Below, piece after piece: positions 35,837 through 56,515 of a stretch of 64,000 nt of DNA (positions are counted from its first letter, which is position 1; each line of letters begins with the position of its first letter). Origin of the DNA: Niveispirillum cyanobacteriorum. Its GTDB lineage: Bacteria > Pseudomonadota > Alphaproteobacteria > Azospirillales > Azospirillaceae. The notes below the pieces were generated by a model. That model saw nothing but the letters and a program-made list of their open reading frames with translations, did not search any database and was not told the origin of the DNA. Location: positions 1,358,501 through 1,422,500 of the forward strand of contig NZ_CP025611.1 in assembly GCF_002868735.1 (NCBI RefSeq). The letters are read 5' to 3'. The translations under genes were made by a program, and so were the position numbers.

Positions 35837-37258
35837 ATGAATCAGCCCGCCACCGTCCGCTGGCAGCCCGCCATCGCCCACCGTCCGGGCCCACTTTATC
35901 GCGCCATCGCGGCAGCCCTGGCGGAGGATATCGCCAACGGGACCCTGCCGCCCGGCACCCGCCTGCCCACCCACCGTGATCTGGCCTGGGACCTGAAGGT
36001 TACTGTCGGCACTATCACGCGGGCCTACCAGGAGGCTGAACGTCAGGGCTTGATCGGTGGCGAAGTCGGGCGCGGCACCTTTGTGCGTGACCCCCGCCGC
36101 CTGACAGAGCCGGTGGCGGACACAGGCGGCACCCTGATGGAGATGAATGTTGGCCTGATCGACCTGTCGGTAAATGCCACAGCCCTGTGGCCCGACGCGG
36201 GTGCCCTGACGGCAGCAACGCAGGCCGTGGCGCAACGGCCCGATCTGGTGGCCCTTATGTCCTATCAGACCCCGCTGGGCCATCCGCGCCTGCGCGCCGC
36301 CATTGCCGACTGGCTGGCCGACAGCGCCAACATGCATGTGGCCCCCGAACAGGTGCTGCTGGCCGTCGGCGGCCAGGGGGCCATGCTGACGGCCCTGTCC
36401 GCCGTTACGCGGCCGGGCGATACGCTGCTGGTGGAACAGTTGACCTATACCGGATTGCGGGCGGTGGCGCTGCATCTGGGGCTGCGGCTGGTGCCAGTGG
36501 CCATGGACGCCCACGGCCTGCTGCCCGACGCCGTGGAACAGGCGGCCCGCGCCCATGGCGCCCACGCGCTCTACTGCATGCCGACATTGCAGAACCCGAC
36601 GACGGCCACCCTGTCCCTGGACCGCCGTCGCGCGCTGGTCGATGTGGCGCGGCGCATCGGGTTGATGATCATCGAGGATGATGTCTATGGCTTCCTGAAG
36701 CAGCCGGCACCGCCGACCCTGTACAGCCTGGGGCCAGATGTGACGCTGTATATCAGCAGCCTGTCCAAGTCGTTGTTCCCCGGCCTGCGCACGGGCTATG
36801 TGGTGGGGCCGCGCCCGCTGTTTGACCGGCTGGCCACGATCCTGCGCGCCACCGTCCTGGCCCCGGCGCATCTGGGCGTCGTGGTTGCAGCCGAACTGAT
36901 CGACAGTGGGGAGGCGGTGCGCATCGCCCAGCGTCGGCGCGCCCTGGTGGCCGAACGTCAGGCCCTGGCCCGGTCGGTCCTGTCAGGCCTGGATCTAACT
37001 GGTTCAGACCACGCCGTAACCCATCTCTGGCTGCCCCTTCCGGAAAACGTGCGGCGGGAGGAGCTGGTGCGCGGCGCCCTGGAACGCGGGGTGAAGATTA
37101 CGTCTGCCGACGGTTTCAGCCCCGGCAAGGGCGAGGTGCAGAATGCGGTGCGCATCTGCCTGTTGGGCGTGGACCATGCCAGCCAGTTGGAAAAGGGCCT
37201 GTCCGTGGTGGAAAGCCTGATCAGCAACCCGGTCGCCACCAGTGCAGCCTGGGTTTAA
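35837..37258 (+). CDS. MocR/PdxR-family transcription regulator (GntR HTH + aminotransferase fold, 473 aa)
   Basis: An N-terminal GntR winged helix (about residues 15-85, with TRLPTHRDLAWDLKVTVGTITRAYQEAERQGLI) is fused to a class I aminotransferase-like domain that binds PLP. The Schiff-base lysine is K311 in SSLSKSLFPGLRTGY. ATG 35837 is chosen because GAGG lies 9 nt upstream; ATG 35828 touches it. MocR proteins sense PLP-amine adducts and control PLP, GABA, taurine or amino-acid export genes. Here the likely targets are the divergent LysE gene and the decarboxylase operon. Its TAA and the stop of the convergent gene lie in one GGTTTAAACC palindrome. Confidence 0.93.
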   Translation: MNQPATVRWQPAIAHRPGPLYRAIAAALAEDIANGTLPPGTRLPTHRDLAWDLKVTVGTITRAYQEAERQGLIGGEVGRGTFVRDPRRLTEPVADTGGTLMEMNVGLIDLSVNATALWPDAGALTAATQAVAQRPDLVALMSYQTPLGHPRLRAAIADWLADSANMHVAPEQVLLAVGGQGAMLTALSAVTRPGDTLLVEQLTYTGLRAVALHLGLRLVPVAMDAHGLLPDAVEQAARAHGAHALYCMPTLQNPTTATLSLDRRRALVDVARRIGLMIIEDDVYGFLKQPAPPTLYSLGPDVTLYISSLSKSLFPGLRTGYVVGPRPLFDRLATILRATVLAPAHLGVVVAAELIDSGEAVRIAQRRRALVAERQALARSVLSGLDLTGSDHAVTHLWLPLPENVRREELVRGALERGVKITSADGFSPGKGEVQNAVRICLLGVDHASQLEKGLSVVESLISNPVATSAAWV

Positions 37259-38028
37259 ACCGACAGCAGCCGTTCCGCCAGTTCCACATCCGCCGCCTTG
37301 TCCACATCGACGGCCGCCAGACCGAAGGGCATTTCCACAACCCCTGCCCTGGCCCCCGTGATGCGACCCAAGCGCGCCAGGGCGGCGGTCAGGGTCAGGC
37401 GGCCCAGCATGAACCGCAGGATCGACAGCGGGCCCAGCAGGCGGATCATGCGCAGCGGGTGTTTGCGCTGGGCCTCCACCTGCCGCCAGATTTGCGCCAC
37501 ACCAGCGGCAGCGGGGGTGCGGAAGGCGAACATATTGCAGCCGGAGAAGGCCCCGTCGGCAAAGCGCAGATAGGTGCGCTTCGTCTCCGGCACCGCCGAC
37601 TGGATCACGCTGTCACGCGCCAAACCGACGCAGACATCGCTGCCGTCCGGCAGATGCGTCAGGAAATGATCCACCCATTCCGGGCGCAGCAGCGCATGGT
37701 CTGCCGTGGTCACGAACAGCGGCGTGCCCAGCGCCTCCAGTGCTGCCGACACGCTGCGGCTGGGGCTGCCTTCTGCCGGCAGCAAGGCGATGCGCCCACC
37801 AGCTAGCAGCAGGCCCAATTCCGGGTGCTGTTCCACCAGTTCAGGCCGCTCGATGGCGATATGGATCATACCGACGCTGGGCGACGCGATCAGCGCCCGC
37901 ACCACACGCACCAGCATGGGCACGCCTGCAATGGGGGCGAAGGCCTTGTGGCTGACGCCCATCAGCTTGGCCACCGGGTCCTCCGGCCCGCGCGATCCCG
38001 CCAGGACCAGCGTGTCCATCGGCGTCAC
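37255..38028 (-). CDS. MobA-like nucleotidyltransferase (257 aa)
   Basis: A Rossmann-type NTP transferase. The N-terminal LVLAGSRGPEDPVAKLMGVSHKAFAPIAGVPMLV replaces the usual LAGGxSxRMGxxK loop, and TTADHALLRPEW supplies the metal-binding aspartate region (about 100). It is coupled to the acyltransferase gene upstream: GTG 38028 overlaps its TGA (GTGA); ATG 38019 is the alternative start. Last gene of the minus-strand sphingolipid operon. It probably activates a headgroup precursor with CTP or GTP (inference). Substrate unproven. Confidence 0.82.
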   Translation of the reverse strand: MTPMDTLVLAGSRGPEDPVAKLMGVSHKAFAPIAGVPMLVRVVRALIASPSVGMIHIAIERPELVEQHPELGLLLAGGRIALLPAEGSPSRSVSAALEALGTPLFVTTADHALLRPEWVDHFLTHLPDGSDVCVGLARDSVIQSAVPETKRTYLRFADGAFSGCNMFAFRTPAAAGVAQIWRQVEAQRKHPLRMIRLLGPLSILRFMLGRLTLTAALARLGRITGARAGVVEMPFGLAAVDVDKAADVELAERLLSV

Positions 38029-39179
38029 AGCGCACGCTCATAAAGGCGATAGGTCTTGTACCGTTCGGAGCCGATAGCCTCGATCATGCGGCGCATGGGC
38101 CGGTTGTCTTCCAGGATCCAGGACAGCTCAATCCATTCATAACCCAGCTTGCGCGCTTCAAGGCGCATCCGGTCGACCACCAGAAAGGGCAGAATGGCCT
38201 GCAACCAGCCGCCCACGTCACGCCGCACCCCCATCAGGGGAACACGCGCCGTCTTCACGCCCGCCACCTTCAACCGCCACAGCAACTTGATGATGCCGAA
38301 TGGGAACAGTTTGCCGCCCAGGTCCGCAATCGCTTCGTTCAGGTTGGGCAAGCAGACGCCGAAAGCCACGGGCTTGTCGTCAACCTCGGCGATCCAGGCC
38401 AGCTTGGGGTTGATCAGCAGCTTCAGCGATTTCGCCATCTGCTTGGTCTCGGCCTCTGACAGCGGCACAAAGCCCCAGTTGCCGGACCAGGCATTGTTGA
38501 AGATGCTGGTGACATGGCCCAGATCCTCCTCATACCGCTTCATGTCCAACATCCGCAGACGCAGATTGGCCGGAAGGGGGCGGTCGATCATCTGCCGCAC
38601 ACCAGCCGGCAAATCCTGCTCAATGTCATAAAGATAGGCGTAGACATCCTTGGCCTTGACCAGGCCCGCCGCCTCGATCCGCGGTCCCAGATATGCCAGG
38701 TCATGGCCCATCATCAGCATGGGCGGACGGTCCCAACCATCGACCAGCAAACCAGTCTCCTCATTGATCGACAGGTTGAAGGGGCCGACCATGTGGACCA
38801 TGCCCTTTGCGCGCAGCCAATCGGCGGCGGCTTCAAACAAGGCGTCAACAACCGCCTGATCATCCTCCGCCGCCAGCAGGCCGAAATGGCCGGTGGCGTC
38901 CTTGCGGATGTCGAGGCCAGATCGGTCAATCTGGGCAGAGATGCGACCAACCACCCGAGCCCCGCGCAACGCCAGGAAATACATGACGTCGGCATGCAGG
39001 AAATAGGGGTTGGTCTTGGGCGACAGGGTTTCCTGCCGCTCCATGAACAAGGGAGGAACCCAATTAGGGTCGCCCTGATGCAGCCGGTATGGCAGGGCGA
39101 TGAAGCGGTCAACGCCCTTGGAACCGGGTTCGACCTGTTCGATACGGATGCCGGCGTCCCCGCCCTGGCCGCCGCTCAA
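38025..39179 (-). CDS. YghO-like GNAT-superfamily acyltransferase, candidate bacterial ceramide synthase (384 aa)
   Basis: Resembles the YghO family; the Caulobacter bacterial ceramide synthase (bCerS) is, to my knowledge, a GNAT-superfamily protein of this kind, which N-acylates 3-oxo-sphinganine. Seen here: FIALPYRLHQGDPNWVPPLF near residue 27, a first acyltransferase-like half with GPFNLSINEETGLLVDGWD near 135, and a second half ending with WIELSWILEDNRPMRRMIEAIG near 350. The start is TTG 39179, overlapping the hydroxylase stop (TTGA); no ATG or GTG exists upstream of the conserved region. Neighbours include all other core ceramide genes, which supports the assignment. Confidence 0.75.
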   Translation of the reverse strand: MSGGQGGDAGIRIEQVEPGSKGVDRFIALPYRLHQGDPNWVPPLFMERQETLSPKTNPYFLHADVMYFLALRGARVVGRISAQIDRSGLDIRKDATGHFGLLAAEDDQAVVDALFEAAADWLRAKGMVHMVGPFNLSINEETGLLVDGWDRPPMLMMGHDLAYLGPRIEAAGLVKAKDVYAYLYDIEQDLPAGVRQMIDRPLPANLRLRMLDMKRYEEDLGHVTSIFNNAWSGNWGFVPLSEAETKQMAKSLKLLINPKLAWIAEVDDKPVAFGVCLPNLNEAIADLGGKLFPFGIIKLLWRLKVAGVKTARVPLMGVRRDVGGWLQAILPFLVVDRMRLEARKLGYEWIELSWILEDNRPMRRMIEAIGSERYKTYRLYERAL

Positions 39180-39958
39180 GATGCAGCCTTCACACCGTCG
39201 CTATTGCCCGATGCGGGCGGGCGCGGCGGCCGATCACGCGGCGGCGATCCGGTCAGTTCCATCACCCAGGGATAACGCGCCGCCTCTTCCACATCATAGC
39301 CCAGGTTGAACACTGTCGGGCTGCGCGGCTTCTGCTTGGCTTCGCGGTAGAAGGTACCCAGCAGCATGTCGGGACCATAGGAGATGATCCCGAAATTGCC
39401 GTCCTCGTTGTGGAAGTGGTGATAGAGGTGCAGCTGCTTGATCCGCGCCACCCAGTTCCAGGTCGGCTTGTAGTTTAGGTGCTGGATGCAGTGGAAGAAT
39501 TCATAGATGCAGGTGGTGAACAGGCCGGTAGCCAGCGCCGTCGCCGCCGCCGCCTTACCATCGATCAGGTAGCCGACAGGCACCGTCACCAAGGCGATGG
39601 TGGGCAGGGTGTTGGCCAAGCTGCCGAACAGCACCTCCAGCTTATGCGGATCCTGGTGATGGTCGAAATGGATACGCTTCCACAGGGCGGCGGACCATTT
39701 CATCCGGTACAGCCAGCGGCCATGCAGGATGAATCGGTGGATCAGGTACCAGGCCATCGGATAGATGAATGTCGCGACCAGCACGGTCAGGGCCATCAGC
39801 CCCCAATTCTCCGTCCAGATCACCGCTAGCACGGCAGAGGCAAGCGCCAGCGCCGCGTAGGCCTGGATGGCCGGATATGTGGAATAGGCAAAAGCCAATT
39901 CCCGCAGGTTCATCTTGCCGAGGTCATAGCTGCGGCCGCGCCAGGCATCGCCCCACAT
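39176..39958 (-). CDS. Sterol-desaturase-family fatty-acid/sphingolipid hydroxylase (260 aa)
   Basis: An integral membrane di-iron oxygenase. Four or so hydrophobic segments lie between residues 25 and 150. Three histidine clusters form the metal site: HRFILHGR (about 75), HFDHHQDPH (about 95) and HLYHHFHNEDGN (about 180). It is likely to hydroxylate the acyl or long-chain base part of a ceramide because it is coupled by a 4-bp overlap to the ceramide-synthase-like gene (inference). ATG 39958 has AAAGGG 7 nt upstream. Confidence 0.88.
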   Translation of the reverse strand: MWGDAWRGRSYDLGKMNLRELAFAYSTYPAIQAYAALALASAVLAVIWTENWGLMALTVLVATFIYPMAWYLIHRFILHGRWLYRMKWSAALWKRIHFDHHQDPHKLEVLFGSLANTLPTIALVTVPVGYLIDGKAAAATALATGLFTTCIYEFFHCIQHLNYKPTWNWVARIKQLHLYHHFHNEDGNFGIISYGPDMLLGTFYREAKQKPRSPTVFNLGYDVEEAARYPWVMELTGSPPRDRPPRPPASGNSDGVKAAS

Positions 39959-39983
39959 GCCCCTACCCTTTCCTAAATCATCA

Positions 39984-40043: not shown

Positions 40044-40077
40044 AGGGCGATGCCGCAATGCGACACCGTATCGCCCT
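40044..40077 (-). terminator. Hairpin overlapping the lptG stop codon
   Basis: AGGGCGAT and ATCGCCCT pair perfectly (8 bp) around an 18-nt loop; the stem includes the end of the lptG stop. No T-run follows. Confidence 0.4.
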
Positions 40078-41155
40078 ATCCTTCCACATAGACCATGATG
40101 GCCCCGCCGATCGCAGCGAACAGGATCAGCGGGGACCAAACCGCCATCACCGGCGGCAAGGCACCCGCCTGCCCCATGGAGCTGAGAATGCCCGAGGATA
40201 GCAGGAAAATCAGGCCGATGACGGTGCCCAGCGCCAGACTGCCCATGGCCCCACCGCGCCGGCGCATGCCATGGGCGACGGGTGCGGCAAGCAACAGCAT
40301 GACCAGCGATGCCAGCGGGGCCGCATAGGTGGAATGCAGCCGGGTGGCATAGTAGGTGGGGCTTTCGCCGCCAGCCCAGTTCCCCCGCACGATGCGCAGC
40401 AGCCGGTTGAAGGGAATGTTCTCCGGCGGCTTGCGCAGGTCGATCATATTGTTGGGTGAAAGATCCACGTCCCAGCGCGCCTTATCACTCTGCGTCACGC
40501 GCAGCGGCTCCCCGATCTCGGTCTGGACCACGCCCGACAGCTGCCAGCCATCGGGGCCATGATCGCCGCTGACCGCCGACATCAGGCCCGTCGCCTTGCC
40601 GTCCGCGTCGCGGGTGACCATCTCCACGCCCTCGATATGCTTGCCATCGTCGGAAATACTGGCGATGCGCACGACATGATCGCCCAGCCGGAACCAGACC
40701 GGCTTCACTGGATCATCATCCTTCTTTTCCGAGGGCAGTTCCGTCGCGGTCCACCAGCTGACGAACGCGCGTTCGCAGCGCGGGGCCACCTGATCGGCCA
40801 TGATGAAATGGGCGATGGAGATGACCAATGCCGCCGGCAGCAGCGCGCCCATGATCTGGTATGGCGTCATGCCGACCGACCGCATGGCCACGATCTCATT
40901 CGTTGACGCAAAGGTCCAAAGCGTGGACAGCGAGCCGATCAGCACCGCCAGTGGCACCACCCTTTCCATCACCATCGGCAGGCGGATCATCGTGTAATAG
41001 ACGAGGCCCCCGCCGCCCAGCCCACGCTCCAGAACCGTAGACGCGGCGTCCAATAGGTCGAGCAGTTGCAACAGTGCCGACAGCGCGAACAGAACCGACA
41101 GGACGCGAACCAGGAAGGTGCGGGTCAGATAACGGGTGATGGTGCTGCGGTTCAT
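40076..41155 (-). CDS. lptG: LptG-family lipid export permease (359 aa)
   Basis: Inner-membrane permease of the YjgP/YjgQ family that with LptF and LptB extracts lipopolysaccharide for transport to the outer membrane. It begins MNRSTITRYLTRTFLVRVLSVLFALSALLQLLDLL, with two helices before a periplasmic jellyroll (about 130-265) and more helices at the C-terminus, the normal plan. ATG 41155 overlaps the lptF stop (ATGA). Its place between HIT/LptF and ceramide genes leaves open whether it serves LPS, sphingolipid, or both. Confidence 0.92.
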   Translation of the reverse strand: MNRSTITRYLTRTFLVRVLSVLFALSALLQLLDLLDAASTVLERGLGGGGLVYYTMIRLPMVMERVVPLAVLIGSLSTLWTFASTNEIVAMRSVGMTPYQIMGALLPAALVISIAHFIMADQVAPRCERAFVSWWTATELPSEKKDDDPVKPVWFRLGDHVVRIASISDDGKHIEGVEMVTRDADGKATGLMSAVSGDHGPDGWQLSGVVQTEIGEPLRVTQSDKARWDVDLSPNNMIDLRKPPENIPFNRLLRIVRGNWAGGESPTYYATRLHSTYAAPLASLVMLLLAAPVAHGMRRRGGAMGSLALGTVIGLIFLLSSGILSSMGQAGALPPVMAVWSPLILFAAIGGAIMVYVEG

Positions 41156-42402
41156 GGCTTGGCCCCCACCGCCTTCTTTTTCCGGCGCTTGAACAGACGG
41201 CCAACGAAGCTTGTCGCGGTGTCGATGGTATCGAACATGGCCGCGAACGGATTTTCTCCCGGCCGCACATCGGCGCGGTGGAACAACCAGCCGCACAGCA
41301 GGCAAAACAGGCCGAACGGCACCCAGATGCCGATGCTGGGCGGCAGGCGTCCAACATCACCCAGGCTTTCACCCAGCTGGATCAGATGATGGTAGATGAT
41401 CAGGATCAGGGTCGCCAACGCGATCCCCTGCCCGCGCCGCGCCCGCTTCGCCGCCATACCCATCGGCACGGCCAGCAGGGGCAGCAGCGGCAATGACAGT
41501 GACCGGGCCAGCCGCGCATGCAGTTCCGACCGCACCTTGTTGAAAGGCAGGATCGACTGCGGGTCGTGCATTTCCGACCATAGCTCATGCAAGGTCAGTT
41601 CACGCTCGCTGCCGCCACGTTCGCGAAACGGTTCGGTGACCAGCCGGAATGGCTTATCCAGTGTCATTTCCCCGAACTCCATCACCTGCCGGCGGCCATC
41701 CGGAAGCACGCGCACCTGCACCCCGTCATGCAGGGTAACCAGCACACGCTGCCGGTCGGGTGTGGCGGCCAGGGCGCCGGTGACGGCTGTGGTCACCCAC
41801 TTCTCGCCATTGTCGCGGTCCTGCTGCACAAACACCTTTTCCAGACGGCGCCCCGTCGGGTCCACCATATCGGCGGAGATGGTGACGCCTTCGCCGGCAT
41901 CGACAAAAGTGGCTTGCGGCACCGTCGCGTCCCAGGCCGCATTGACTACCATGTGATAAATGGCGCTGTAGCCATAACGACCATAGGGCTGGAGATAGCC
42001 GAACAGGATGATGGAAAACACCATCAGGGCCACACCCAGACCCAGGAAGGACCGGGCGATGCGCGGCACGGACAGGCCGGCCGACTGCAACGCGTCCAGT
42101 TCATTATCCTCCCCCATCCGGGCGACGATGATGAACATGGAGATAAAGAACGCCGCCGGCAGGGCCAGACCCAGATAATGCGGCACCAGATTGGCGACCA
42201 GCCGGATGACCATGTCGAACGGCCCGCCATGATTGGCCAGCAGGTCGAACAGCCGCAGCAGCCGTTCCATCAGCAGCGCCACCAGCACGACCAGGAGCGA
42301 CGCGAACAACGGCTTCAGCGTCTCGGTCAGGATATAGCGGTCGATCAGCCGCGTGGAGTGAAGCTGATATTGCCGTTCTGACGGCAGCGGCGAACCGTTC
42401 AC
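41152..42402 (-). CDS. lptF: LptF-family lipid export permease (416 aa)
   Basis: Partner of LptG in the LptBFG transporter. Early membrane helices (about 30-110), a periplasmic beta-jellyroll (about 140-265) and C-terminal helices are visible, with a basic C-terminal tail (RLFKRRKKKAVGAK) beyond the usual end. The GTG at 42402 overlaps the HIT gene stop (GTGA) and is preferred over GTG 42417. It lies in an operon with ceramide genes, unlike the common neighbourhood with pepA or lptD. Confidence 0.92.
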   Translation of the reverse strand: MNGSPLPSERQYQLHSTRLIDRYILTETLKPLFASLLVVLVALLMERLLRLFDLLANHGGPFDMVIRLVANLVPHYLGLALPAAFFISMFIIVARMGEDNELDALQSAGLSVPRIARSFLGLGVALMVFSIILFGYLQPYGRYGYSAIYHMVVNAAWDATVPQATFVDAGEGVTISADMVDPTGRRLEKVFVQQDRDNGEKWVTTAVTGALAATPDRQRVLVTLHDGVQVRVLPDGRRQVMEFGEMTLDKPFRLVTEPFRERGGSERELTLHELWSEMHDPQSILPFNKVRSELHARLARSLSLPLLPLLAVPMGMAAKRARRGQGIALATLILIIYHHLIQLGESLGDVGRLPPSIGIWVPFGLFCLLCGWLFHRADVRPGENPFAAMFDTIDTATSFVGRLFKRRKKKAVGAKP

Positions 42403-42845
42403 GTCACATCCACCCACAATGCCTTCAGATCGGCGGTCAGCGCCGCCAGCATATCGGCATCCAGCGCCACCGCCTGGCCCAGCGCCGGCGGGCCGGGCCA
42501 GCCGGCATCGGGGAAGCTGACGCCGAGATAGTCCCGCGCGCCTTCATAGCGGGGGATGACATGGAAATGCACGTCGGGGTCCACCATCATCAGCATCAGG
42601 TAGTTGATCTTCTGATAGGCGGTGAACCGGGTCAGCACACTCTCCACCCGCGCCACCACCTCCTGCAGCCCTGCGAACGCCGCCGGCGTCAACTGCCCAA
42701 AGGCGGTCGCCGGCTCCTTGCAGACCAGAACAAGGGAGCCCAGGGCCGGTTGCTGCGGCCGTACCTGTACCGACCACAGGGCCGTATCCGCCACAACGCT
42801 GGCCGGATGGCCGAATTTCAGCATGGTGGCATTGGGCTGTGTCAT
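42399..42845 (-). CDS. HIT-family protein with altered histidine triad (148 aa)
   Basis: A small nucleotide hydrolase/transferase-fold protein. The triad region reads DVHFHVIPRY: the first histidine of HxHxHxx is replaced by aspartate, while the central nucleophile and the third histidine remain. An upstream N-terminal domain (about 10-60) matches the family. ATG 42845 is preferred over GTG 42857. Coupled to lptF by a 4-bp overlap. Might hydrolyse or transfer a nucleotidyl group in headgroup metabolism (inference only). Confidence 0.83.
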   Translation of the reverse strand: MTQPNATMLKFGHPASVVADTALWSVQVRPQQPALGSLVLVCKEPATAFGQLTPAAFAGLQEVVARVESVLTRFTAYQKINYLMLMMVDPDVHFHVIPRYEGARDYLGVSFPDAGWPGPPALGQAVALDADMLAALTADLKALWVDVT

Positions 42846-42949
42846 GGGGCGCGGCACTCTGGAGAACGAAAGAGACAGGCACTTTAGTGCGGAACAGAGG
42901 GGACCGGAACCACCATTATCCGGTGACGTGCCCGTATCCGCCCCAAGGC

Positions 42950-43861
42950 CTATAACGCGGCAGGCAGCCGAAGCGTCCAGCCGCCCAAGGCCGTGACCGG
43001 CCCATCGCGGCGTTCCACGCCCCGCACTTCCACCTGCACCCGCCAGTCGGGGCCGTCTGTGTCCACCGTCACAAGGTGCCAGCGGCCAGGCATGTCATGG
43101 CGATAACCAATGGCCGACGCCGACGGCACCGTCAGACTGGGGATCGGGCCCTTGGGCCCCTTGATCATCGACAGGTTGGCAACATGGGCATGACCGTGCA
43201 GCAGCATTTCCGCCCCTGTCCGCGACAGGAGGTCACGCAACTCCCGCCGGTCGGTCAACCCCTTGCGTCCCGACACCACACCATCGGCCACGGGATGATG
43301 TACCATCAGCACCCGGAACAGCCCGCGCCGCCCGGCATCGGCAAGCAGATCACCCAGCCGTTCCATCTGTTCGCGGCCCAGCGCCCCCTGCGCCAGCAGC
43401 GGCTTGGTCGGCACACCGGAATTGGCACCGATGAAGGCCACGGACCCACGCTGCCGCAAATAGGGGAATGCCACTCCCCCTTGCCCATCGCCTGTCATGT
43501 AGTCGGCCCAAAGGCCCAGGCCATCGGCGAATGGCACATGCACCATGGCGTCATGATTGCCGGGCACGTAGGACACATCCTGCCCCGCACCCAACCCGTG
43601 CAGCCAGACAGCACCGCGCTGAAATTCGCCGGCCAAGGAGATGTTAGCGATGTCGCCCGTCACGACCCAATGGTCCACGCCCTGCGCCCGGATGTCGCCA
43701 ACAATAGCGGCCAGCATGGTGGGCGTGTGGGCATGGCGGCGTTTACGCTGCCATGACTGATAGGACAATGTACGCTTGGACAGCCACTCCAACCCTTTCG
43801 GACGGTCAGGTTCCAGCGGCAGATGCGGGTCGGATAGGTGGGCAAAGCGGAAGGGCTGCAT
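42950..43861 (-). CDS. Calcineurin-like metallophosphoesterase (303 aa)
   Basis: A binuclear-metal phosphohydrolase. Motifs in order: SDPHLP (about 10), VTGDIAN (about 65), PGNHD (about 100), MVHHPVADG (about 185) and LLHGHAH (about 220). No signal peptide, so probably cytoplasmic or peripheral to the inner membrane. Could remove a phosphate from a lipid or headgroup precursor, or act as a cyclic-nucleotide phosphodiesterase. ATG 43861 is listed; TTG 43870 with AAGG 9 nt upstream is a serious alternative. It is the first gene of the minus-strand operon and is divergent from the CDP-alcohol phosphotransferase gene. Confidence 0.85.
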   Translation of the reverse strand: MQPFRFAHLSDPHLPLEPDRPKGLEWLSKRTLSYQSWQRKRRHAHTPTMLAAIVGDIRAQGVDHWVVTGDIANISLAGEFQRGAVWLHGLGAGQDVSYVPGNHDAMVHVPFADGLGLWADYMTGDGQGGVAFPYLRQRGSVAFIGANSGVPTKPLLAQGALGREQMERLGDLLADAGRRGLFRVLMVHHPVADGVVSGRKGLTDRRELRDLLSRTGAEMLLHGHAHVANLSMIKGPKGPIPSLTVPSASAIGYRHDMPGRWHLVTVDTDGPDWRVQVEVRGVERRDGPVTALGGWTLRLPAAL

Positions 43862-43944
43862 GAAAGCCAAGCTACAATGCCTTACAGGCGATAGGCAAAG
43901 CCCGCGTCAGGGAGTATGTAGACCATCAACAAATCCATCTGATC

Positions 43945-49451: not shown

Positions 49452-50849
49452 ATGGGCAGGGCATACCCATTTCAGACAGCTCGACACGTGGCCCGTAAGA
49501 CGTTCCGTTCTCCCCTCACATCCTGGTTTGGCGATGACCGCCTGCGCCGTCTGTTTGCCAATGCCGGCATCCTGCTGGGCGGCAAGACGGTGAACGCTAT
49601 TGCCGGCTTGGCGGGACTGGCCATCGCCGCACGCGCGCTGGGGGTGGAACAGTTCGGCATCCTGGTCCTGATCCACACCTTCACCCAGACCATCGGTGAG
49701 ATCGCCAAATTCCAGAGCTGGCAGGCTGTCCTGCGTTACGGCACCCCCGCGCTGAACGATGGGCGGATCGGTGATTTCCAGCGTCTGCTGCGTTTCACAG
49801 CACACCTGGACGGGTGGAGTGCAATCGCCGGCACATTCCTGTCTGTGGCCGTTGCCTGGGCGTTGGGCCCGTCCTTCGACTGGCCGGCGGAACTGATGCC
49901 GGCGGCCCTGATCTATGTCACATCGGTCCTGTTTATGGTGCAGGCCACGCCCACGGGCATCCTGCGCCTGATCGACCGGTTCGACATCCTGTCGGTGCAA
50001 AGCACGCTGGGGGCCATCATCCGCATGGTGGGCGGCGGCATCGCTTGGGTGATGGGCGGCGGCATCGTGGCCTTCCTCGTGGCCTGGTACATCGCAACCG
50101 CCGTCGCCGGTATCTATCTCATCGCCAAGGGCTGGTCGGAACTGCGCAAGCGCGGTTTGCTGGACGGGTATAGCTGGCGTGGCGATGGCAAGCCGATGAG
50201 CCATGGATTCGACGGGGTGTGGAGCTTCGTCTGGTCCACCAACCTCTCCTCCACCCTGGAACTGGCCTATACCCATATCGGCACGCTGGCCGTCGGCTGG
50301 ATGCTGGGCCCACGCGACGCCGCCCTGTTCCGCATCGCCCGGCAATTAGGGGAAGCTCTGGCCAAGCCTGCCAAGCTGCTGATCCCCGCCATTTACCCCG
50401 AATTGTCGCGCATGATCGAGGCGCGGCAGTTCGGGGAGATGCGATCTCTGATCCAACGTTCGGCCCTGCTGGCCGGGGCCGGCGCCATGCTGGCGCTGGT
50501 CATCTGCTGGTTCATTGGGGAAATCGGCCTGCGGCTGATCGTGGGGGAGGAGTTCGTGCCCGCCTGGCCCGTCATGATGTGGCTGGTGGCCGCCGCCGTG
50601 GTCGGTATCTGGTCCTTCCCGCTGGAACCCGTCATGGTTTCGGCAGGTGAGGCGCACAAAGCACTGATGGTGCGCATCTGGACTACGGCGGTCTACATCC
50701 CGATCCTTCTGGCCTGCATCCACTGGTTTGGCTTGATTGGCGCCGGCTGGGCCCGCATGTTCTCCGCCATCCTGGTGCTTGTCGCGTTTCTGGTGCCCGT
50801 GGTGCGCTGGTTCCGACAGCGGATGGCGGAGGAGCGGAACAAGGCATGA
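49452..50849 (+). CDS. MOP-superfamily polysaccharide/lipid flippase (465 aa)
   Basis: A polytopic inner-membrane protein with about 12-14 helices and the Wzx/MurJ-like opening LFANAGILLGGKTVNAIAGLAGLAIAARALGVEQFG near residue 38. It may flip a glycolipid or lipid-linked headgroup. The ATG at 49452 has no clear Shine-Dalgarno; GTG 49488 is an alternative. Its stop overlaps the next gene (ATGA). Co-occurrence with YghO-like proteins parallels the yghO-yghQ neighbourhood in E. coli as I recall it. Confidence 0.85.
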   Translation: MGRAYPFQTARHVARKTFRSPLTSWFGDDRLRRLFANAGILLGGKTVNAIAGLAGLAIAARALGVEQFGILVLIHTFTQTIGEIAKFQSWQAVLRYGTPALNDGRIGDFQRLLRFTAHLDGWSAIAGTFLSVAVAWALGPSFDWPAELMPAALIYVTSVLFMVQATPTGILRLIDRFDILSVQSTLGAIIRMVGGGIAWVMGGGIVAFLVAWYIATAVAGIYLIAKGWSELRKRGLLDGYSWRGDGKPMSHGFDGVWSFVWSTNLSSTLELAYTHIGTLAVGWMLGPRDAALFRIARQLGEALAKPAKLLIPAIYPELSRMIEARQFGEMRSLIQRSALLAGAGAMLALVICWFIGEIGLRLIVGEEFVPAWPVMMWLVAAAVVGIWSFPLEPVMVSAGEAHKALMVRIWTTAVYIPILLACIHWFGLIGAGWARMFSAILVLVAFLVPVVRWFRQRMAEERNKA

Positions 50850-51973
50850 GGATCGGGTTTCTCTACAACAGTCAGAGTCACCAGATCCTGCATTCCCTGC
50901 CCATGGCGCTGGAACTGTCCATCCTACGCCCGGACTGGCAGGTGGACATCCTGGCCCCCAGCCACGACCACTTGGATTACATCCAGCAATTCATCCCGCT
51001 TTATCCCGGCGCCAGAGTCACTCTGTGCCTATTACCGCAGCCGCTGGGCATTCGTGTTTACCGTCGGTTCCGTGCTCTCCCAGTGCCCCCCAAGGCATGG
51101 TCGCTGTTCCATAACCGCCGGATGCTGAATAGCTATGACGCGCTGGTGTCGACGGACAAGACCAGCCTCTTGCTGCGCTGGTTCGGTGTCAGGCGGCCCA
51201 AATTCATCAACACCGAACATGGCGCCGGTGATCGGGACGTCACCTTTGACCCCCGCGTTGCCAAGTTCGACTTTAACCTGATCCCCAGCCCGAAAAGTGC
51301 GCAGCGCCTGGTGGAGGCGGGATATCTGACGGCGAACCGCTATGCGGTTTCAGCCTATGCGAAGTTCGACGCCGTCAACCGGCTGGCGGGCAAACGCCTC
51401 CCCCTGTTCGGCAATGGCCGGCCCACCATCCTCTACAACCCGCACTTCTCCGCAACACTGGGGTCGTGGCCACGCTTTGGCATGACGGTTCTGGAGATCA
51501 TGGCCCGTCAGGACCGGTACAACCTGATTTTCGCGCCACATATGCGGCTGTTCGACCCGGTGACGCCGGGCAAACTGGCGACCTTTCAGCGATTCCAGGG
51601 CCTTGATCATATTCATATTGACCTGGGCAGTGATGCCAGTTGCGATATGACCTACACAATGGCCGCAGACCTCTACCTCGGGGATGTCAGCAGTCAGGTC
51701 TATGAGTTCCTGTGCAAGCCACGTCCATGCGTGTTCCTGAACGCCCATGCCGTTGCTTGGCACGAAAACGCCAATTACCGATTCTGGACCTTCGGGCCTG
51801 TGCTGGACACGCTTGATGATCTGCTGATGCATCTGGACGATGCTTTCGCCAGGCATGAGCAATGGCGGGCAGTACAGGAACACGCTTTTGCCGCAAATTT
51901 CGACCTGTCGGTTAATAATCCAGGACGGCATAACGCCACGCTGCTGGCGGAATGGCTGTCCCGCTCCATTTGA
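50846..51973 (+). CDS. CDP-glycerol glycerophosphotransferase-like protein (375 aa)
   Basis: A GT-B-like transferase resembling the TagB/TagF family that moves glycerol phosphate from CDP-glycerol. Matching features: NTEHGAGDRD near residue 125, ILYNPHFSATLGSW near 195 and AADLYLGDVSSQVYEFL near 273 (family DxxSS...D site). It starts inside the flippase stop. In this context it is a candidate for adding a glycerophosphate-type group to ceramide or to a surface polymer. Product unproven. Confidence 0.78.
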   Translation: MRIGFLYNSQSHQILHSLPMALELSILRPDWQVDILAPSHDHLDYIQQFIPLYPGARVTLCLLPQPLGIRVYRRFRALPVPPKAWSLFHNRRMLNSYDALVSTDKTSLLLRWFGVRRPKFINTEHGAGDRDVTFDPRVAKFDFNLIPSPKSAQRLVEAGYLTANRYAVSAYAKFDAVNRLAGKRLPLFGNGRPTILYNPHFSATLGSWPRFGMTVLEIMARQDRYNLIFAPHMRLFDPVTPGKLATFQRFQGLDHIHIDLGSDASCDMTYTMAADLYLGDVSSQVYEFLCKPRPCVFLNAHAVAWHENANYRFWTFGPVLDTLDDLLMHLDDAFARHEQWRAVQEHAFAANFDLSVNNPGRHNATLLAEWLSRSI

Positions 51974-52148
51974 CAGGCGGAAAGGGTGCCCCTACATCCG
52001 CGCTGATTGCCCGAAACCTCCCGCTCTGGTATGAGCCGGCATGGACGGGCCTCCATATGTTGGGGGTACGCTTTTGCCGTTTCACGCTGTGAACGGAATT
52101 CAATCCTTCGCTTCGGGCCTCACGCCCCCTTGTTCGGAACAGTACGCC

Positions 52149-53882
52149 ATGGTCAGCCCCACTCCTTCCAAGCATGCGCTCGCCTCCCGCCTGGCTGATT
52201 TCGCCACGGTTCCGGAAGCGATTGAATACGCGTCGCGCGGGGAAACCGGCCTGAATTTCTATTCCGGCAAGGGTGAACTGACAGAGGCCCTACCCTATGC
52301 GCAGATGTATGAACAGGGCGTGGCGCTGGCCCGGAAGATGCTGGCCAAGGGGCTGACGAAGGGCGACCGCGTCGCCATCATCGCTGAGAGCGATGGCGAC
52401 TTCATGCGCGCCTTTACCGCATGCCAGTTCGCGGGCCTTGTTCCCGCCCCCCTGCCCCTGCCGGCAGCATTCGGTGGCAAGGATGCCTATATCGAACATA
52501 TCCGGCGCATGATGCAGGGGGCCGATGCCTCCGCCGTCCTGTCGCCCGCGTCGCTGGCCGACTGGGTGAAGGCCGCCGCCGATGGACTGGACATGAAGGC
52601 GGTGGGCACACTTTCCGTGTTCGACGATGTCGATGGGGCGGGGATCGAACTGCCGACCGTCGGGCCGGACGATCTCTGCTACCTGCAATTCTCGTCCGGC
52701 AGCACGCGCTTCCCCCTGGGCGTGGCCGTGACGCAGCGTGCCCTGATGGCCAATGCCTATGCCATCACCCATCATGGGCTGAAGATCACGGCGGCGGATC
52801 GCTGCGTTTCCTGGCTGCCGCTCTATCATGACATGGGGCTGGTCGGGTTCCTGCTGACCCCGCTGGTCTGTCAGGTTTCCATCGACTATCTGCCGACCCG
52901 CGAATTTGCCCGCCGTCCGCTCCTGTGGCTGAACCTGATCACCCGCAATGGTGGCACGCTCTCCTACAGCCCCAGCTTCGGGTATGAGCTGGCGGCCCGG
53001 CGCGCGGAGACGGCCTCGACCGAAGGGATCGACCTGTCCACCTGGCGCGGTGCCGGCATTGGCGGTGACATGGTGCGCCCGCGCGTGCTGCGCAAGTTCG
53101 CGGAAACCTTCGCCCCGCGCGGGTTCAGCGCCGGCGCCCTGGTCCCCTCCTACGGCATGGCAGAGGCGTCGCTGGCCCTGTCCTTCGCCCCGCTTGGCGT
53201 TGGGCTGGTCACTGATCGGGTCGATCTGGACCGGCTGGAGGGCGACGCGGTCGCCGTGCCGCCCGGCCCCCAGACGGAGCGTGAGCGTGAATTCGTGCTG
53301 AACGGCCCCGTCCTGCCGGGCCACCAGATCGAAGTGCGCGATCCCGATGGCAAGGTGCTGGGTGAAAAGCAGGTGGGCCGCCTGTTTGCCCGCGGCCCCT
53401 CGCTGATGCGCGATTATTTCAACCGGCCGGAGGAGACGGCGGCTGTCCTATCCGCCGATGGCTGGCTGGACACGGGCGACCTCGGTTACATCTGCGATGG
53501 TCAGATTGTCATCACGGGCCGGGCCAAGGACCTGATCCTGGTCAACGGCCGCAACATCTGGCCGCAGGACCTGGAATGGTCCGCCGAACATTCCATCGAC
53601 AGCCTGCGCAGCGGCGACGTCGTTGCCTTCTCGGTCGATGGTGACGGCGGGGAACAGGTGGTGGTGCTGGTCCAGTGCCGTCCGACCCAGGAAGAGGCCC
53701 GCGCCGCCCTGGCAGCGCAGGTGCAGGGCGTGCTGCGCGCCGCCCACGGGCTGGAGGTGAAGGTGGTGCTGGTGCCCACCCACTCCCTGCCCCAGACCTC
53801 GTCCGGCAAGCTGTCGCGCACCAAGGCACGGCAGATGCTGCTGGCTGGTGAGTTCGGCGCCAACGCCATGCTGTCCGCCTGA
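52149..53882 (+). CDS. aasR: Acyl-ACP synthetase / fatty acyl-AMP ligase of ceramide synthesis (577 aa)
   Basis: An ANL-superfamily enzyme that activates a fatty acid with ATP and loads it onto an acyl carrier. The AMP-binding P-loop is LQFSSGSTRFPLGV near 182, with WLPLYHDMGLVG near 223, PSYGMAEASLA near 336 and DTGDLGYI near 440, as in FAAL-type proteins. ATG 52149 follows a 175-nt gap; upstream in-frame ATG 52041 would add a non-conserved extension. Followed 2 nt later by the CerR gene, with the dedicated ACP and Spt beyond, matching the Caulobacter ceramide order (AasR, CerR, AcpR, Spt). Confidence 0.87.
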   Translation: MVSPTPSKHALASRLADFATVPEAIEYASRGETGLNFYSGKGELTEALPYAQMYEQGVALARKMLAKGLTKGDRVAIIAESDGDFMRAFTACQFAGLVPAPLPLPAAFGGKDAYIEHIRRMMQGADASAVLSPASLADWVKAAADGLDMKAVGTLSVFDDVDGAGIELPTVGPDDLCYLQFSSGSTRFPLGVAVTQRALMANAYAITHHGLKITAADRCVSWLPLYHDMGLVGFLLTPLVCQVSIDYLPTREFARRPLLWLNLITRNGGTLSYSPSFGYELAARRAETASTEGIDLSTWRGAGIGGDMVRPRVLRKFAETFAPRGFSAGALVPSYGMAEASLALSFAPLGVGLVTDRVDLDRLEGDAVAVPPGPQTEREREFVLNGPVLPGHQIEVRDPDGKVLGEKQVGRLFARGPSLMRDYFNRPEETAAVLSADGWLDTGDLGYICDGQIVITGRAKDLILVNGRNIWPQDLEWSAEHSIDSLRSGDVVAFSVDGDGGEQVVVLVQCRPTQEEARAALAAQVQGVLRAAHGLEVKVVLVPTHSLPQTSSGKLSRTKARQMLLAGEFGANAMLSA

Positions 53883-53884
53883 TT

Positions 53885-54829
53885 ATGAAGGTCGCCGCCA
53901 TCACGGGTGGCACGGGCTTTCTAGGCCGCTACATCGTGGCGGCCCTGCACCGCGCCGGTTTTGCCGTCCGCATGCTGGTGCGTCAGGACCCGGTGCATCC
54001 GCTGCTAGACGATGTCCGGCCCGAACTGGTACTCGGCGATCTGTGTGATGATGCAGCCCTGGCAAGGCTGGTCACCGGGGCCGATGTCGTCATCCATAGT
54101 GCGGGCCTGATCAAGGCCAGGGACCGGGCACAGTTCTTCGCCGTCAACGAGGGCGGGTCGGCCGCCATCGGCCGTGCCGTCGCCACCCACGCCCCCGGCG
54201 CCCGACTGCTGCTGATCTCCAGCCAGGCCGCGACGCAGCCGCACCTGTCCCACTATGCCGCCAGCAAGCGGGCGGGCGAGGTGGCCGCATTGGCAGCCTA
54301 TGGCGGAACTGATTGGTGCGTCATCCGGCCGCCCGCCATCTATGGCCCCTGGGACCGTGAAACCCTGTCGCTGTTCAAGGCGGCGGCGGGGCCTGTCGTG
54401 CCCGTTCTGGGCGGGGCCGATGCGCGGCTTGCCATGGTGCAGGTGGAAGATGCCGCCGACGCCATCGCCGCCCTAGCCATCCCTGGCGGGCCACAGGGGC
54501 AGGAATTTGCCCTGTGTGACGGGGTCGCCGCCGGCTATGACTGGACCACGCTGCTGGATTGCGCGGCGGATGCGGTTGGCCAACGCGCGGCCCGTGTCCG
54601 GGTCCCTGTCCCGATCCTGCGGGCCATCGGACTGGCCGGCAGCATTACCGCCGCCGTGACCGGCAAGGCGGTAATGCTGACCCTGCCGAAGACGCGGGAA
54701 ATCACCCATCCCGACTGGTCTGTCGCGTCGCAACAAATGCCGCCTGAATCGCTCTGGAAACCCCGGGTCGGGCTGCGCGAAGGGTTCGCGGGTGCGGCAA
54801 AATGGTATCGGGAGCATCGCTGGATCTAG
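53885..54829 (+). CDS. cerR: NAD(P)-dependent reductase CerR, 3-oxo-ceramide reductase (314 aa)
   Basis: An extended short-chain dehydrogenase/epimerase-fold protein. The nucleotide loop GGTGFLG is at about 8-14 and the catalytic YxxxK is Y124/K128 in HYAASKRAGEV. In Caulobacter the orthologous protein reduces the 3-keto group in bacterial ceramide synthesis, after N-acylation. Two nt behind aasR. The upstream/downstream order (aasR-cerR-acpR-spt) supports the assignment over a sugar epimerase role. Confidence 0.87.
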   Translation: MKVAAITGGTGFLGRYIVAALHRAGFAVRMLVRQDPVHPLLDDVRPELVLGDLCDDAALARLVTGADVVIHSAGLIKARDRAQFFAVNEGGSAAIGRAVATHAPGARLLLISSQAATQPHLSHYAASKRAGEVAALAAYGGTDWCVIRPPAIYGPWDRETLSLFKAAAGPVVPVLGGADARLAMVQVEDAADAIAALAIPGGPQGQEFALCDGVAAGYDWTTLLDCAADAVGQRAARVRVPVPILRAIGLAGSITAAVTGKAVMLTLPKTREITHPDWSVASQQMPPESLWKPRVGLREGFAGAAKWYREHRWI

Positions 54830-54876
54830 CGATTTGAACAAAGTTCGCTCCAAACTGTTGCGAATTTACCCTGCGC

Positions 54877-54892: not shown

Positions 54893-55042
54893 GGTGATCC
54901 ATGCGTTTTGTGGTTTGCTCTTGCATCCTTCGGCGTTGCAATTACCTTACCGGAAAGTGACGCTTTTTAGGACAGAGGCCGGGGGGCACCGGTCTGTTAG
55001 CTACTGCAATAACCTATTCTGAAAGACTTCCGGGGCGCTTTA

Positions 55043-55294
55043 ATGACTACCGACGTCAACGACATCGTCGAAACCATCATCGCCGCCCTGGTCAAGACCT
55101 TGCCAACGCCGGTCACCGTCACGACGGAGACCAGCATCACGCGTGATCTCGGCCTGGATAGCCTGGCTGTCATGGATTTCGTGATGGTGCTCGAGGATAA
55201 GTTCGATGTCTCGATCCCGATGGAACGGATCGCGGAAGTCGAAACCATCGGCGACCTGGCCAGGACCATATCGGAACTCCGGGGGCACGCCTGA
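55043..55294 (+). CDS. acpR: Dedicated acyl carrier protein for ceramide synthesis (83 aa)
   Basis: Small acidic helical carrier with the phosphopantetheine serine S40 in LGLDSLAVMDF. Ends 3 nt before the spt gene. By analogy with Caulobacter it carries the acyl chain used by Spt or the ceramide synthase and is loaded by AasR. The N-terminus and acidic recognition helix (VMVLEDKF) are normal. Confidence 0.9.
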   Translation: MTTDVNDIVETIIAALVKTLPTPVTVTTETSITRDLGLDSLAVMDFVMVLEDKFDVSIPMERIAEVETIGDLARTISELRGHA

Positions 55295-55297
55295 GAA

Positions 55298-56515
55298 ATG
55301 ACGATCCTTGCCAAGTACACCAAGCTCCGCGAGCATTATCACCGCATTGCCGGCGCCGGCCGTGACCCGTTCACGGTAAAGTTCGACGCCATGCTCTCCC
55401 CCACAGAGGGCATGCTGAACGGTCGCCGCACGATCCTGCTCGGCACCAACAACTATCTGGGCCTGACCTTCGACCAGAGCTGCATCGACAAGGGCGTCGA
55501 AGCGCTGAAGTCGTTTGGTACTGGCACTACCGGCTCGCGCATCGCCAATGGCAGCTACGACGGGCATGCCGCGCTGGAGCGTGAACTGGCAAAGTTCTAT
55601 GGCCGTGAAAACTGCATGGTCTTCACGACCGGCTATCAGGCGAACCTGGGCATCATCTCCACCCTTGTGGGCAAGGATGATTTGCTGTTCCTGGATAGCG
55701 ACAGCCATGCCAGCATCTATGACGCGGCCAAGATGACCCCTGCCCAGGTCATCCGCTTCCGTCACAACGATCCGGAAGATCTGAACAAGCGTCTGCGCCG
55801 CGTCGCCGACCATCCTGGCAACAAGCTGGTGGTGGTCGAAGGCATCTATTCGATGCTGGGCGATGTCGCGCCGCTGAAGGAATTCGCTCAGGTTAAGCGC
55901 GAGAATGGCGTCTACCTGCTGGTGGATGAGGCCCATTCCATGGGCGTGCTGGGTGAGACCGGCCGTGGTCTGGCGCAGGAAGTGGGCGTTGAGGATGATG
56001 TCGACTTCATCGTCGGCACCTTCTCCAAGAGCCTGGGCGCCGTCGGCGGCTTCTGCGTCTCCGACCTGCCGGACTTTGACGTGCTGCGGGTCGCCTGCCG
56101 TCCCTACATGTTCACGGCCTCCCTGCCCCCGTCGGTCATCGCCACCTGCCTGCGCTCGCTGGAGCGGATGCAGGAAGAGCCGGGCCTGCGCACCAAGCTG
56201 ATGGCCAATTCCAAGCGCCTGTATGAGGGCCTGCGGAACAAGGGCTTCCAGGTCGGTCCCGATGTGAATCCGATCGTGGCGGTTTCCCTGCCTTCGATCG
56301 AGCTGGCGATCACCTTCTGGAACCGCCTGCTGGAGGAGGGTCTGTATCTGAACCTCGCCCTGCCGCCGGCCACCCCGAACAGCCAGTCCCTGCTGCGCAC
56401 CAGCGTGAGCGCCGCCCACACGACCAAGCAAATCGATACCGCGATCGAGCTGTTCGGCAAGGTGGCCCGTCAGCTGAACGTGCAGCCGGCCCTGGTTCAG
56501 ACCGCCGCTGAGTAA
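55298..56515 (+). CDS. spt: Serine palmitoyltransferase
   Basis: Condenses serine with an acyl thioester to 3-oxo-sphinganine, the first committed step of sphingolipid synthesis. A PLP-dependent alpha-oxoamine synthase of 405 residues. N-terminal LGTNNYLGLTF, GTGTTGSRIANGSYDGH near 75, VDEAHSMGVLGETGRG near 208 and the Schiff-base lysine K244 in GTFSKSLGAVGG are visible. Distinguished from KBL and 8-amino-7-oxononanoate synthase by context: dedicated ACP directly upstream and CerR/AasR before it, as in Caulobacter. A perfect terminator follows. Confidence 0.92.
   Translation: MTILAKYTKLREHYHRIAGAGRDPFTVKFDAMLSPTEGMLNGRRTILLGTNNYLGLTFDQSCIDKGVEALKSFGTGTTGSRIANGSYDGHAALERELAKFYGRENCMVFTTGYQANLGIISTLVGKDDLLFLDSDSHASIYDAAKMTPAQVIRFRHNDPEDLNKRLRRVADHPGNKLVVVEGIYSMLGDVAPLKEFAQVKRENGVYLLVDEAHSMGVLGETGRGLAQEVGVEDDVDFIVGTFSKSLGAVGGFCVSDLPDFDVLRVACRPYMFTASLPPSVIATCLRSLERMQEEPGLRTKLMANSKRLYEGLRNKGFQVGPDVNPIVAVSLPSIELAITFWNRLLEEGLYLNLALPPATPNSQSLLRTSVSAAHTTKQIDTAIELFGKVARQLNVQPALVQTAAE

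What the first reader, a model, noticed from the sequence alone, without database searches (positions are those of the whole stretch)
37255..56515. Sphingolipid locus with core enzymes, headgroup and transport candidates in one region
Within about 19 kb are the core ceramide genes (spt, acpR, cerR, aasR, YghO/bCerS-like acyltransferase), a lipid hydroxylase, a DAG-kinase-fold kinase, two nucleotidyltransferase-like proteins, a CDP-alcohol phosphotransferase, a CDP-glycerol-transferase-like protein, a phosphoesterase, a methyltransferase, LptF/LptG, a flippase and MlaA. This could be a self-contained route from serine to an exported anionic sphingolipid. The core pathway is known from Caulobacter; the combined headgroup and transport set is the less described part.
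Basis: partly seen in the sequence, partly recalled or inferred. Interest (0 to 1): 0.9.

Follow-up and report, generated by a model that had tools for sequence, protein, structure and literature searches.

The report
Caulobacter-type anionic sphingolipid gene cluster
This stretch of a bacterial chromosome carries nearly all the genes, already known from Caulobacter, for making ceramide and turning it into a negatively charged outer-membrane lipid; one needed enzyme lies elsewhere in the genome, and a few extra genes suggest a modified version of the lipid.

Summary
Window 37255-56515 matches the Caulobacter ceramide diphosphoglycerate (CPG2) cluster CC_1167-CC_1153 by 15 orthologues, so the combined headgroup and transport set is already described (PMC11324152, PMC12275187). 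Corrections: (1) it is not self-contained. The nucleotidyltransferase at 37255 is the CC_1153 orthologue, not the CDP-glycerate synthase CpgD; true CpgD lies about 112 kb beyond the window. (2) The "CDP-glycerol transferase" is the CC_1167 orthologue, set aside in print as "probably unrelated"; in 385 genomes of the class it is concentrated in those with CpgC (9 of 41, against 2 of 344). New: CpgA and CpgD occur in exactly the same 23 of those 385 genomes, all within the 41 that have CpgC. This supports a core module (CerK, CpgC) with an optional extension (CpgA, CpgD). A model of CpgC matches Tam41 CDP-diacylglycerol synthase best, favouring CDP-ceramide as an intermediate. Additions relative to the Caulobacter cluster: an FA2H/SCS7-like hydroxylase, a methyltransferase overlapping cpgC, and an adjacent MlaA. 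No lipid was measured; function is inferred from homology.

The parts
37255..38028 (-). NTP transferase, orthologue of CC_1153 (not CpgD)
   Evidence: PF12804 46.7 bits; C. vibrioides syntenic orthologue 44-46% identity; true CpgD located separately by primer EK1708; model pLDDT 95.5 with nucleotidyltransferase fold, best hit 2dpw
38025..39179 (-). bacterial ceramide synthase bCerS (CC_1154 orthologue)
   Evidence: 55% identity to the C. vibrioides syntenic orthologue; no Pfam or NCBIfam hit
39176..39958 (-). FA2H/SCS7-like fatty acid hydroxylase, candidate N-acyl hydroxylase
   Evidence: PF04116 62.9 bits; only PDB sequence hits at E up to 0.1 are yeast SCS7 4zr1/4zr0, E 8e-4 and 2e-3; invariant histidines in 19 aligned sequences; no match at E 1e-15 in C. 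vibrioides
40076..41155 (-). LptG2-type permease
   Evidence: TIGR04408 257.7 bits, cut-off 240; 33% to the C. vibrioides cluster gene; start at ATG 41155
41152..42417 (-). LptF2-type permease (true start may lie further in)
   Evidence: PF03739 252 bits, TIGR04407 229.9 bits, just under its cut-off 230; 41% to the C. vibrioides cluster gene
42399..42857 (-). HIT-domain protein, CC_1157 orthologue by position
   Evidence: PF01230 23.2 bits; 59% to C. vibrioides
42950..43870 (-). calcineurin-like phosphoesterase, CC_1158 orthologue
   Evidence: PF00149 46.9 bits; 42% to C. vibrioides
43945..45117 (+). CpgA, CDP-alcohol phosphotransferase (CC_1159 orthologue)
   Evidence: PF01066 36.8 bits; complete catalytic motif; 54% to C. 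vibrioides
45124..46077 (+). CerK/CpgB ceramide kinase (CC_1160 orthologue)
   Evidence: PF00781 37.4 bits; GGDG at residue 62; 35% to C. vibrioides
46074..47009 (+). CpgC, Tam41-like nucleotidyltransferase (CC_1161 orthologue)
   Evidence: 47.5% to C. vibrioides; model pLDDT 89.7, first five PDB fold hits all Tam41
47006..47623 (+). SAM methyltransferase whose GTG start overlaps the cpgC stop (GTGA)
   Evidence: PF13489 45.8 bits; overlap in the sequence; in 7 of 8 family relatives with the region fetched, in 0 of 39 fetched stretches of other families, some of them short
47681..48436 (+). TauE/SafE-family permease, link to the pathway uncertain
   Evidence: PF01925 144.6 bits; position varies between relatives
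48455..49276 (-). MlaA lipoprotein, divergent neighbour of the flippase
   Evidence: PF04333 230.7 bits; next to Flip in 7 of 8 family relatives
49452..50849 (+). Wzx-type flippase, CC_1166 orthologue
   Evidence: PF01943 54.4 bits; 40% to C. vibrioides
50846..51973 (+). TagF-like CDP-glycerol phosphotransferase relative, CC_1167 orthologue by position
   Evidence: PF04464 17.3 bits, below cut-off 22.1; 13 of 18 aligned members match at E up to 0.1; profile hits TagF-like Cps3D 8qoy E 6e-4; 43% to C. vibrioides
52041..53882 (+). AasR fatty acyl-AMP ligase / acyl-ACP synthetase
   Evidence: NF006624 874.4 bits; 57% to C. vibrioides
53885..54829 (+). CerR reductase
   Evidence: PF01370 77.6 bits; 44% to C. 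vibrioides
55043..55294 (+). AcpR acyl carrier protein
   Evidence: PF00550 50 bits; DSL site; 52% to C. vibrioides
55298..56515 (+). Spt serine palmitoyltransferase
   Evidence: NF047599 676.5 bits, cut-off 500; 66% to C. vibrioides

Best explanation
This is the organism's version of the Caulobacter CPG2 cluster. Acyl-AcpR, loaded by AasR, is joined to serine by Spt; [quoted passage not shown] CerK phosphorylates ceramide. CpgC, a Tam41-like nucleotidyltransferase, most likely activates ceramide-1-phosphate with CTP as CDP-ceramide, from which ceramide phosphoglycerate (CPG) is made by a step still unidentified. CpgD, encoded 112 kb away, makes CDP-glycerate, which CpgA uses to add the second phosphoglycerate (CPG2). 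The FA2H/SCS7-like enzyme probably hydroxylates the N-acyl chain, in place of Caulobacter's DesA-type enzyme. The flippase and LptF2/LptG2 probably carry the lipid outward. Shown here: homology, synteny, motifs, co-occurrence, and a predicted fold of CpgC. Shown in Caulobacter by others: the need for the five ceramide genes and for CC_1161-CC_1158, CC_1153 and CC_1152 (mutants), and the CerK and CpgD activities. Inferred: CDP-ceramide, the hydroxylation and its position, the transport.
For: Fifteen orthologues clustered as in C. vibrioides. SPT equivalog score. CerK GGDG and CpgA motif. CpgD in the own genome at 62% identity to the C. vibrioides enzyme, with R16, K26, D112 and W201 kept. CpgA and CpgD in identical sets, 23 of 385 genomes, nested in the 41 with CpgC; in 13 of the 23 they are not within 25 kb on one contig, so linkage alone does not explain it. 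CpgC model: the first five of 379 fold hits are Tam41. Hydroxylase: only SCS7 in the PDB by sequence, matched in 43 of 52 chosen genomes. Genetics and enzymology in PMC11324152, PMC12275187, PMC10331486.
Against: No lipid data from this organism. The LptC2 query, which carries the LptC domain, had no window hit better than E 0.014. The CC_1153-type NTP transferase is needed only for CPG2 in Caulobacter, yet is matched in 51 of 52 genomes, including those without CpgA/CpgD, so its step is not explained by this model. If CpgC makes CDP-ceramide, the enzyme consuming it is unknown: no second CDP-alcohol phosphotransferase motif was found in the window. The Tam41 match is of moderate quality (TM 0.51-0.56, about 12% identity), and Pfam's Tam41 model hits only 1 of 25 CpgC sequences. 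CpgD here has A for T88 and S for T93; both look tolerable, since T88 contacts CTP by its backbone and S keeps the hydroxyl.
Confidence: 0.82

Rival explanations
1. The cluster makes ceramide but ends in a different headgroup: the TagF-like enzyme and flippase (as in teichoic-acid or capsule systems) build a polymeric or glycosylated headgroup, with CPG or CPG2 only an intermediate.
For: TagF-like protein belongs remotely to CDP-glycerol phosphotransferases. Its gene overlaps the flippase gene by four bases. In G012 and G022 a GT4 glycosyltransferase lies between flippase and AasR instead, and in a Roseomonas plasmid a GT4 adjoins the flippase. CC_1167 mutants show cofitness 0.57 with spt.
Against: TagF-like is in only 9 of the 41 CpgC genomes, and 2 of those 9 lack CpgA/CpgD, so it is an optional addition with no fixed CDP-glycerate link. 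In the three sphingomonad plasmid stretches inspected it sits with glycosyltransferases and a flippase, with no CPG gene in those stretches. CpgA, CpgD and the other CPG2 genes are present in this genome.
Confidence: 0.15
2. TagF-like protein, flippase and MlaA belong to an unrelated surface glycan or asymmetry system that merely adjoins the sphingolipid genes.
For: TagF-like, flippase and GT4 occur together in sphingomonad plasmid stretches without sphingolipid genes in view; PMC11324152 calls CC_1167 probably unrelated.
Against: TagF-like and flippase lie together beside AasR both in the window genus and in C. vibrioides, though in swapped order; TagF-like lies on one contig within about 9 kb of CpgA and CpgD in G234; enrichment 9 of 41 against 2 of 344, nominal Fisher p 4e-8 without correction for phylogeny.
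Confidence: 0.3

Closest known systems
Caulobacter crescentus CPG2 cluster CC_1168-CC_1152 (CCNA_01226-01210)
   Same: Same five ceramide genes, CerK, CpgC, CpgA, CC_1153, phosphoesterase, HIT, LptF2/G2, flippase and CC_1167 orthologues in one cluster (on C. vibrioides DSM 9893).
   Different: Here cpgD is unlinked and no LptC2 was found; added FA2H/SCS7-like hydroxylase, methyltransferase, TauE and MlaA; flippase and TagF-like genes swapped; the MlaA-to-Spt block is turned round relative to 7 of 8 family relatives.
Yeast SCS7 / mammalian FA2H ceramide fatty acid 2-hydroxylase
   Same: PF04116, histidine pattern, only PDB sequence matches.
   Different: Weak similarity (22 bits); activity and position of hydroxylation untested. 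Sphingomonas uses a P450, and myxobacteria have an FA2H homologue (PMC10002949 passages).
Tam41 CDP-diacylglycerol synthase
   Same: Fold of the CpgC model.
   Different: About 12% identity; Pfam Tam41 hit in 1 of 25 relatives only; predicted substrate ceramide-1-phosphate.
TagF/TarL teichoic-acid polymerases
   Same: Part of the sequence matches PF04464 and 8qoy.
   Different: Shorter (375 aa), below the Pfam cut-off for the window protein.

Membership tests
Caulobacter-type CPG2 cluster | Five ceramide genes (aasR, cerR, acpR, spt, cerS) | tested here: met
Caulobacter-type CPG2 cluster | Ceramide kinase with GGDG motif | tested here: met
Caulobacter-type CPG2 cluster | CpgC and CpgA orthologues | tested here: met
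   47.5% and 54%; motif
Caulobacter-type CPG2 cluster | CpgD CDP-glycerate synthase in the genome | tested here: met
   present but 112 kb outside the window
Caulobacter-type CPG2 cluster | CpgD linked to the cluster | tested here: not met
   linkage is also not seen in 13 of 23 genomes with both CpgA and CpgD, so I do not take it as defining
Caulobacter-type CPG2 cluster | Second LptF/LptG pair | tested here: inconclusive
   Pair present at the matching place; a separate canonical pair elsewhere in the genome was not searched for
Caulobacter-type CPG2 cluster | LptC2 | tested here: inconclusive
   Best tblastn hit of the C. vibrioides LptC2 in the window E 0.014; rest of the genome not searched
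Caulobacter-type CPG2 cluster | CPG and CPG2 lipids made | not testable with these tools
   Needs lipidomics
FA2H/SCS7 ceramide hydroxylases | PF04116 domain with conserved histidines | tested here: met
   alignment with SCS7
FA2H/SCS7 ceramide hydroxylases | 2-hydroxylation of the N-acyl chain | not testable with these tools
   No enzyme assay possible
Tam41 | Tam41 fold | tested here: met
   on a predicted model; TM 0.51-0.56 by query for the first five hits, 0.30 or less for the next ten
Tam41 | Pfam PF09139 match | tested here: not met
   Window protein no hit; 1 of 25 relatives
PF04464 CDP-glycerol glycerophosphotransferases | Pfam score over gathering cut-off | tested here: not met
   17.3 against 22.1 bits; C. 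vibrioides orthologue 14.9

The most novel reading that the evidence does not exclude
The locus makes a modified CPG2 not yet described: its N-acyl chain is 2-hydroxylated by an FA2H/SCS7-type enzyme inside the cluster, its glycerate headgroup is methylated by the methyltransferase coupled to cpgC, and the gene beside the flippase (TagF-like here and in Caulobacter, a GT4 glycosyltransferase in sister genera) adds a swappable outer headgroup. Across the class the pathway is modular: a CPG core (CerK, CpgC, CC_1153-type NTP transferase) with an all-or-none CPG2 extension (CpgA, CpgD).
Probability: 0.2. Interest if true: 0.7.

Novelty: new variant of a known kind. Interest (0 to 1): 0.45.

Why it matters
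CPG2 helps Caulobacter survive without LPS and is linked to its polymyxin sensitivity. [quoted passage not shown] The exact matching of CpgA with CpgD across 385 genomes and the predicted Tam41 fold of CpgC give direct, testable assignments for both, and 18 genomes with CpgC but without detected CpgA/CpgD predict which bacteria should stop at CPG. The hydroxylase is a candidate FA2H-type route to hydroxylated sphingolipids, beside the Sphingomonas P450, the myxobacterial FA2H homologue and the Caulobacter DesA-type enzyme.

Tried and rejected
I first labelled 37255-38028 as CpgD; the primer position in C. vibrioides showed that true CpgD is the next, convergent gene, so the label was withdrawn (scripts before still carry the old label). 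ORF 47034-47684 was rejected as a gene: the methyltransferase lies in another frame. The G071 family was guessed to hold Caulobacter; a primer search with up to one mismatch found nothing in its 17 genomes, which settles little. CDP-glycerate as the TagF donor was considered; 2 of the 9 genomes with TagF-like and CpgC lack CpgD, so there is no support. The CofC resemblance of CC_1153 suggested in PMC11324152 was not supported by the fold search: no entry named CofC among the 50 listed of 1111 hits. That the window's class is Alphaproteobacteria is my inference from its nearest matches; no call names it.

Rows dropped or limited: one search aligns 19 of the 22 hydroxylases given to (L073 had a stop; L084 and L107 also left out). 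The TagF alignment holds 18 sequences, the window's and 17 of the 20 places found (two places repeat others, one is partial). One search covers 39 stretches; its HIT count uses the 28 that hold LptF2. The genome sets were copied by hand. The C. vibrioides row in the CpgA alignment is cut off by the end of its stretch. The value 1/C(41,23) and the Fisher p values are nominal and ignore phylogeny; at genus level 16 of 28 CpgC genera have both proteins and none is mixed, at family level one of 22 is mixed.
Full report
The region was read with ORF lists and Pfam/NCBIfam scans. Spt passes the serine palmitoyltransferase equivalog cut-off and falls below the BioF and Kbl cut-offs.

The literature holds the reference system. 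PMC11324152 (abstract, section 8 part 1 of 2, sections 9 and 13, passages) describes 17 Caulobacter genes, CC_1168-CC_1152: five for ceramide, six for CPG/CPG2, four proposed for transport, and CC_1167 and CC_1157 as probably unrelated. PMC12275187 (parts 1 and 2 of 4; [quoted passage not shown] PMC13228409 (part 1 of 5) gives CpgD structures. PMC10331486 (passages; [quoted passage not shown] PMC11087976 was seen as abstract and outline only, PMC13001222 and PMC10002949 as passages. Zik et al. 2022 is not held and is known to me here only through these papers. In this open-access library I saw no further paper on LptF2/G2 transport or on CC_1167 in searches.

To compare directly, a primer printed in PMC12275187 located Caulobacter vibrioides DSM 9893 and its region was fetched. 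Fifteen window proteins hit it. Order and direction agree, with two exceptions: TagF-like and flippase are swapped, and the flippase-to-Spt block is turned round. The primer marks the start of cpgD, which lies next to and convergent with the orthologue of the window's 37255 gene. So the window gene is CC_1153, and cpgD is absent from the window. The own genome holds cpgD at C1:1534966-1535718, about 112 kb beyond the window end, with R16, K26, D112 and W201 conserved and A and S in place of T88 and T93. The gene before TagF in C. vibrioides has the LptC domain (PF06835, 83 bits), fitting LptC2; its best hit in the window was only E 0.014.

Distribution: in 385 genomes of the window's class (taken to be Alphaproteobacteria) CpgC is in 41 (E at most 0.001), CpgD in 23 (E at most 1e-30) and CpgA in 23 (E at most 1e-20). 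The two sets of 23 are identical and lie inside the 41. In 10 of the 23 the two genes are within 25 kb on one contig, in one (the window's genome) far apart on one contig, and in 12 on different contigs (fragmented assemblies limit this). By genus, 16 of 28 CpgC genera carry both and none is mixed; one family of 22 is mixed. Related genomes are not independent, so the nominal probabilities overstate the evidence; one of the 18 genomes without the pair is only 82% complete. The reading is a core module (CerK, CpgC) and an all-or-none extension (CpgA, CpgD), which fits the Caulobacter mutants. PMC11324152 had noted one such case, Zymomonas mobilis without CC_1159. The CC_1153-type protein is matched in 51 of 52 genomes searched, including genomes without the extension, although in two families of these the match is weak (28-39% identity); since its Caulobacter mutant lacks only CPG2, its role stays unexplained. 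In fetched stretches holding LptF2, the HIT gene is present in 7 of 15 with the extension and 0 of 13 without (nominal p 0.007).

CpgC: the AlphaFold2 model (pLDDT 89.7) gives Tam41 structures as the first five of 379 fold hits, with moderate TM scores, while Pfam Tam41 matches only 1 of 25 relatives. This supports the authors' suggestion of an activated ceramide. CpgA carries the complete CDP-alcohol phosphotransferase motif and resembles phosphatidylinositol-phosphate synthases.

Differences from Caulobacter: the hydroxylase at 39176-39958 has SCS7 as its only PDB sequence relative (weak, E 8e-4). It is matched in 43 of 52 genomes searched, 33 of the 41 with CpgC, but not in C. vibrioides, where PMC11324152 cites a DesA-type hydroxylase instead. 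The methyltransferase overlaps the cpgC stop codon, occurs in 7 of 8 family relatives and was not found in 39 fetched stretches of other families. MlaA sits divergent to the flippase in 7 of 8 family relatives. The TagF-like protein is in 11 of 385 genomes, 9 of them with CpgC (one of the other two is a weak match). All 15 plasmid records with a match are Sphingobium, Novosphingobium, Croceicoccus or Rhizorhabdus; in the three inspected it lies with glycosyltransferases and a flippase. In G012 and G022 a GT4 gene, in opposite orientation to the flippase, lies between flippase and AasR; whether these genomes hold a TagF-like gene elsewhere was not tested.

Verdict: an orthologue of a known system with informative variation. 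The confirmed part is ordinary for this lineage; the co-occurrence of CpgA with CpgD and the predicted fold of CpgC are the most useful new evidence.

Noticed in passing
L173 (plasmid NZ_CP065408.1, 51844-72746): A conjugative IncP plasmid of the betaproteobacterium Diaphorobacter sp. JS3051 carries a set that by its annotation resembles this one (CpgC match, two CDP-alcohol phosphotransferases, a phosphocholine-cytidylyltransferase-family protein, LptF/LptG pair, HIT, phosphoesterase, lipid kinase, fatty acid desaturase), near mercury-resistance genes. No Spt gene is in the stretch shown.
   Followed up: partly
L174 (plasmid NZ_CP147881.1, 272182-290970): A Roseomonas mucosa plasmid (one inspected of 13 Roseomonas records with a CpgC match) carries the cluster with a sterol-desaturase-family protein and a GT4 glycosyltransferase next to the flippase.
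   Followed up: partly
window 48455-56515 compared with L026, L029, L038: The block from MlaA to Spt is turned round relative to CpgA-CpgC in the window and L024, compared with 7 of 8 family relatives and C. vibrioides.
   Followed up: no
L086-L089, L084: A second CpgA-like CDP-alcohol phosphotransferase (about 32-38% identity) lies between LptG2 and the hydroxylase in four genomes of one family and in one further genome; a candidate for the unassigned CPG step there.
   Followed up: no
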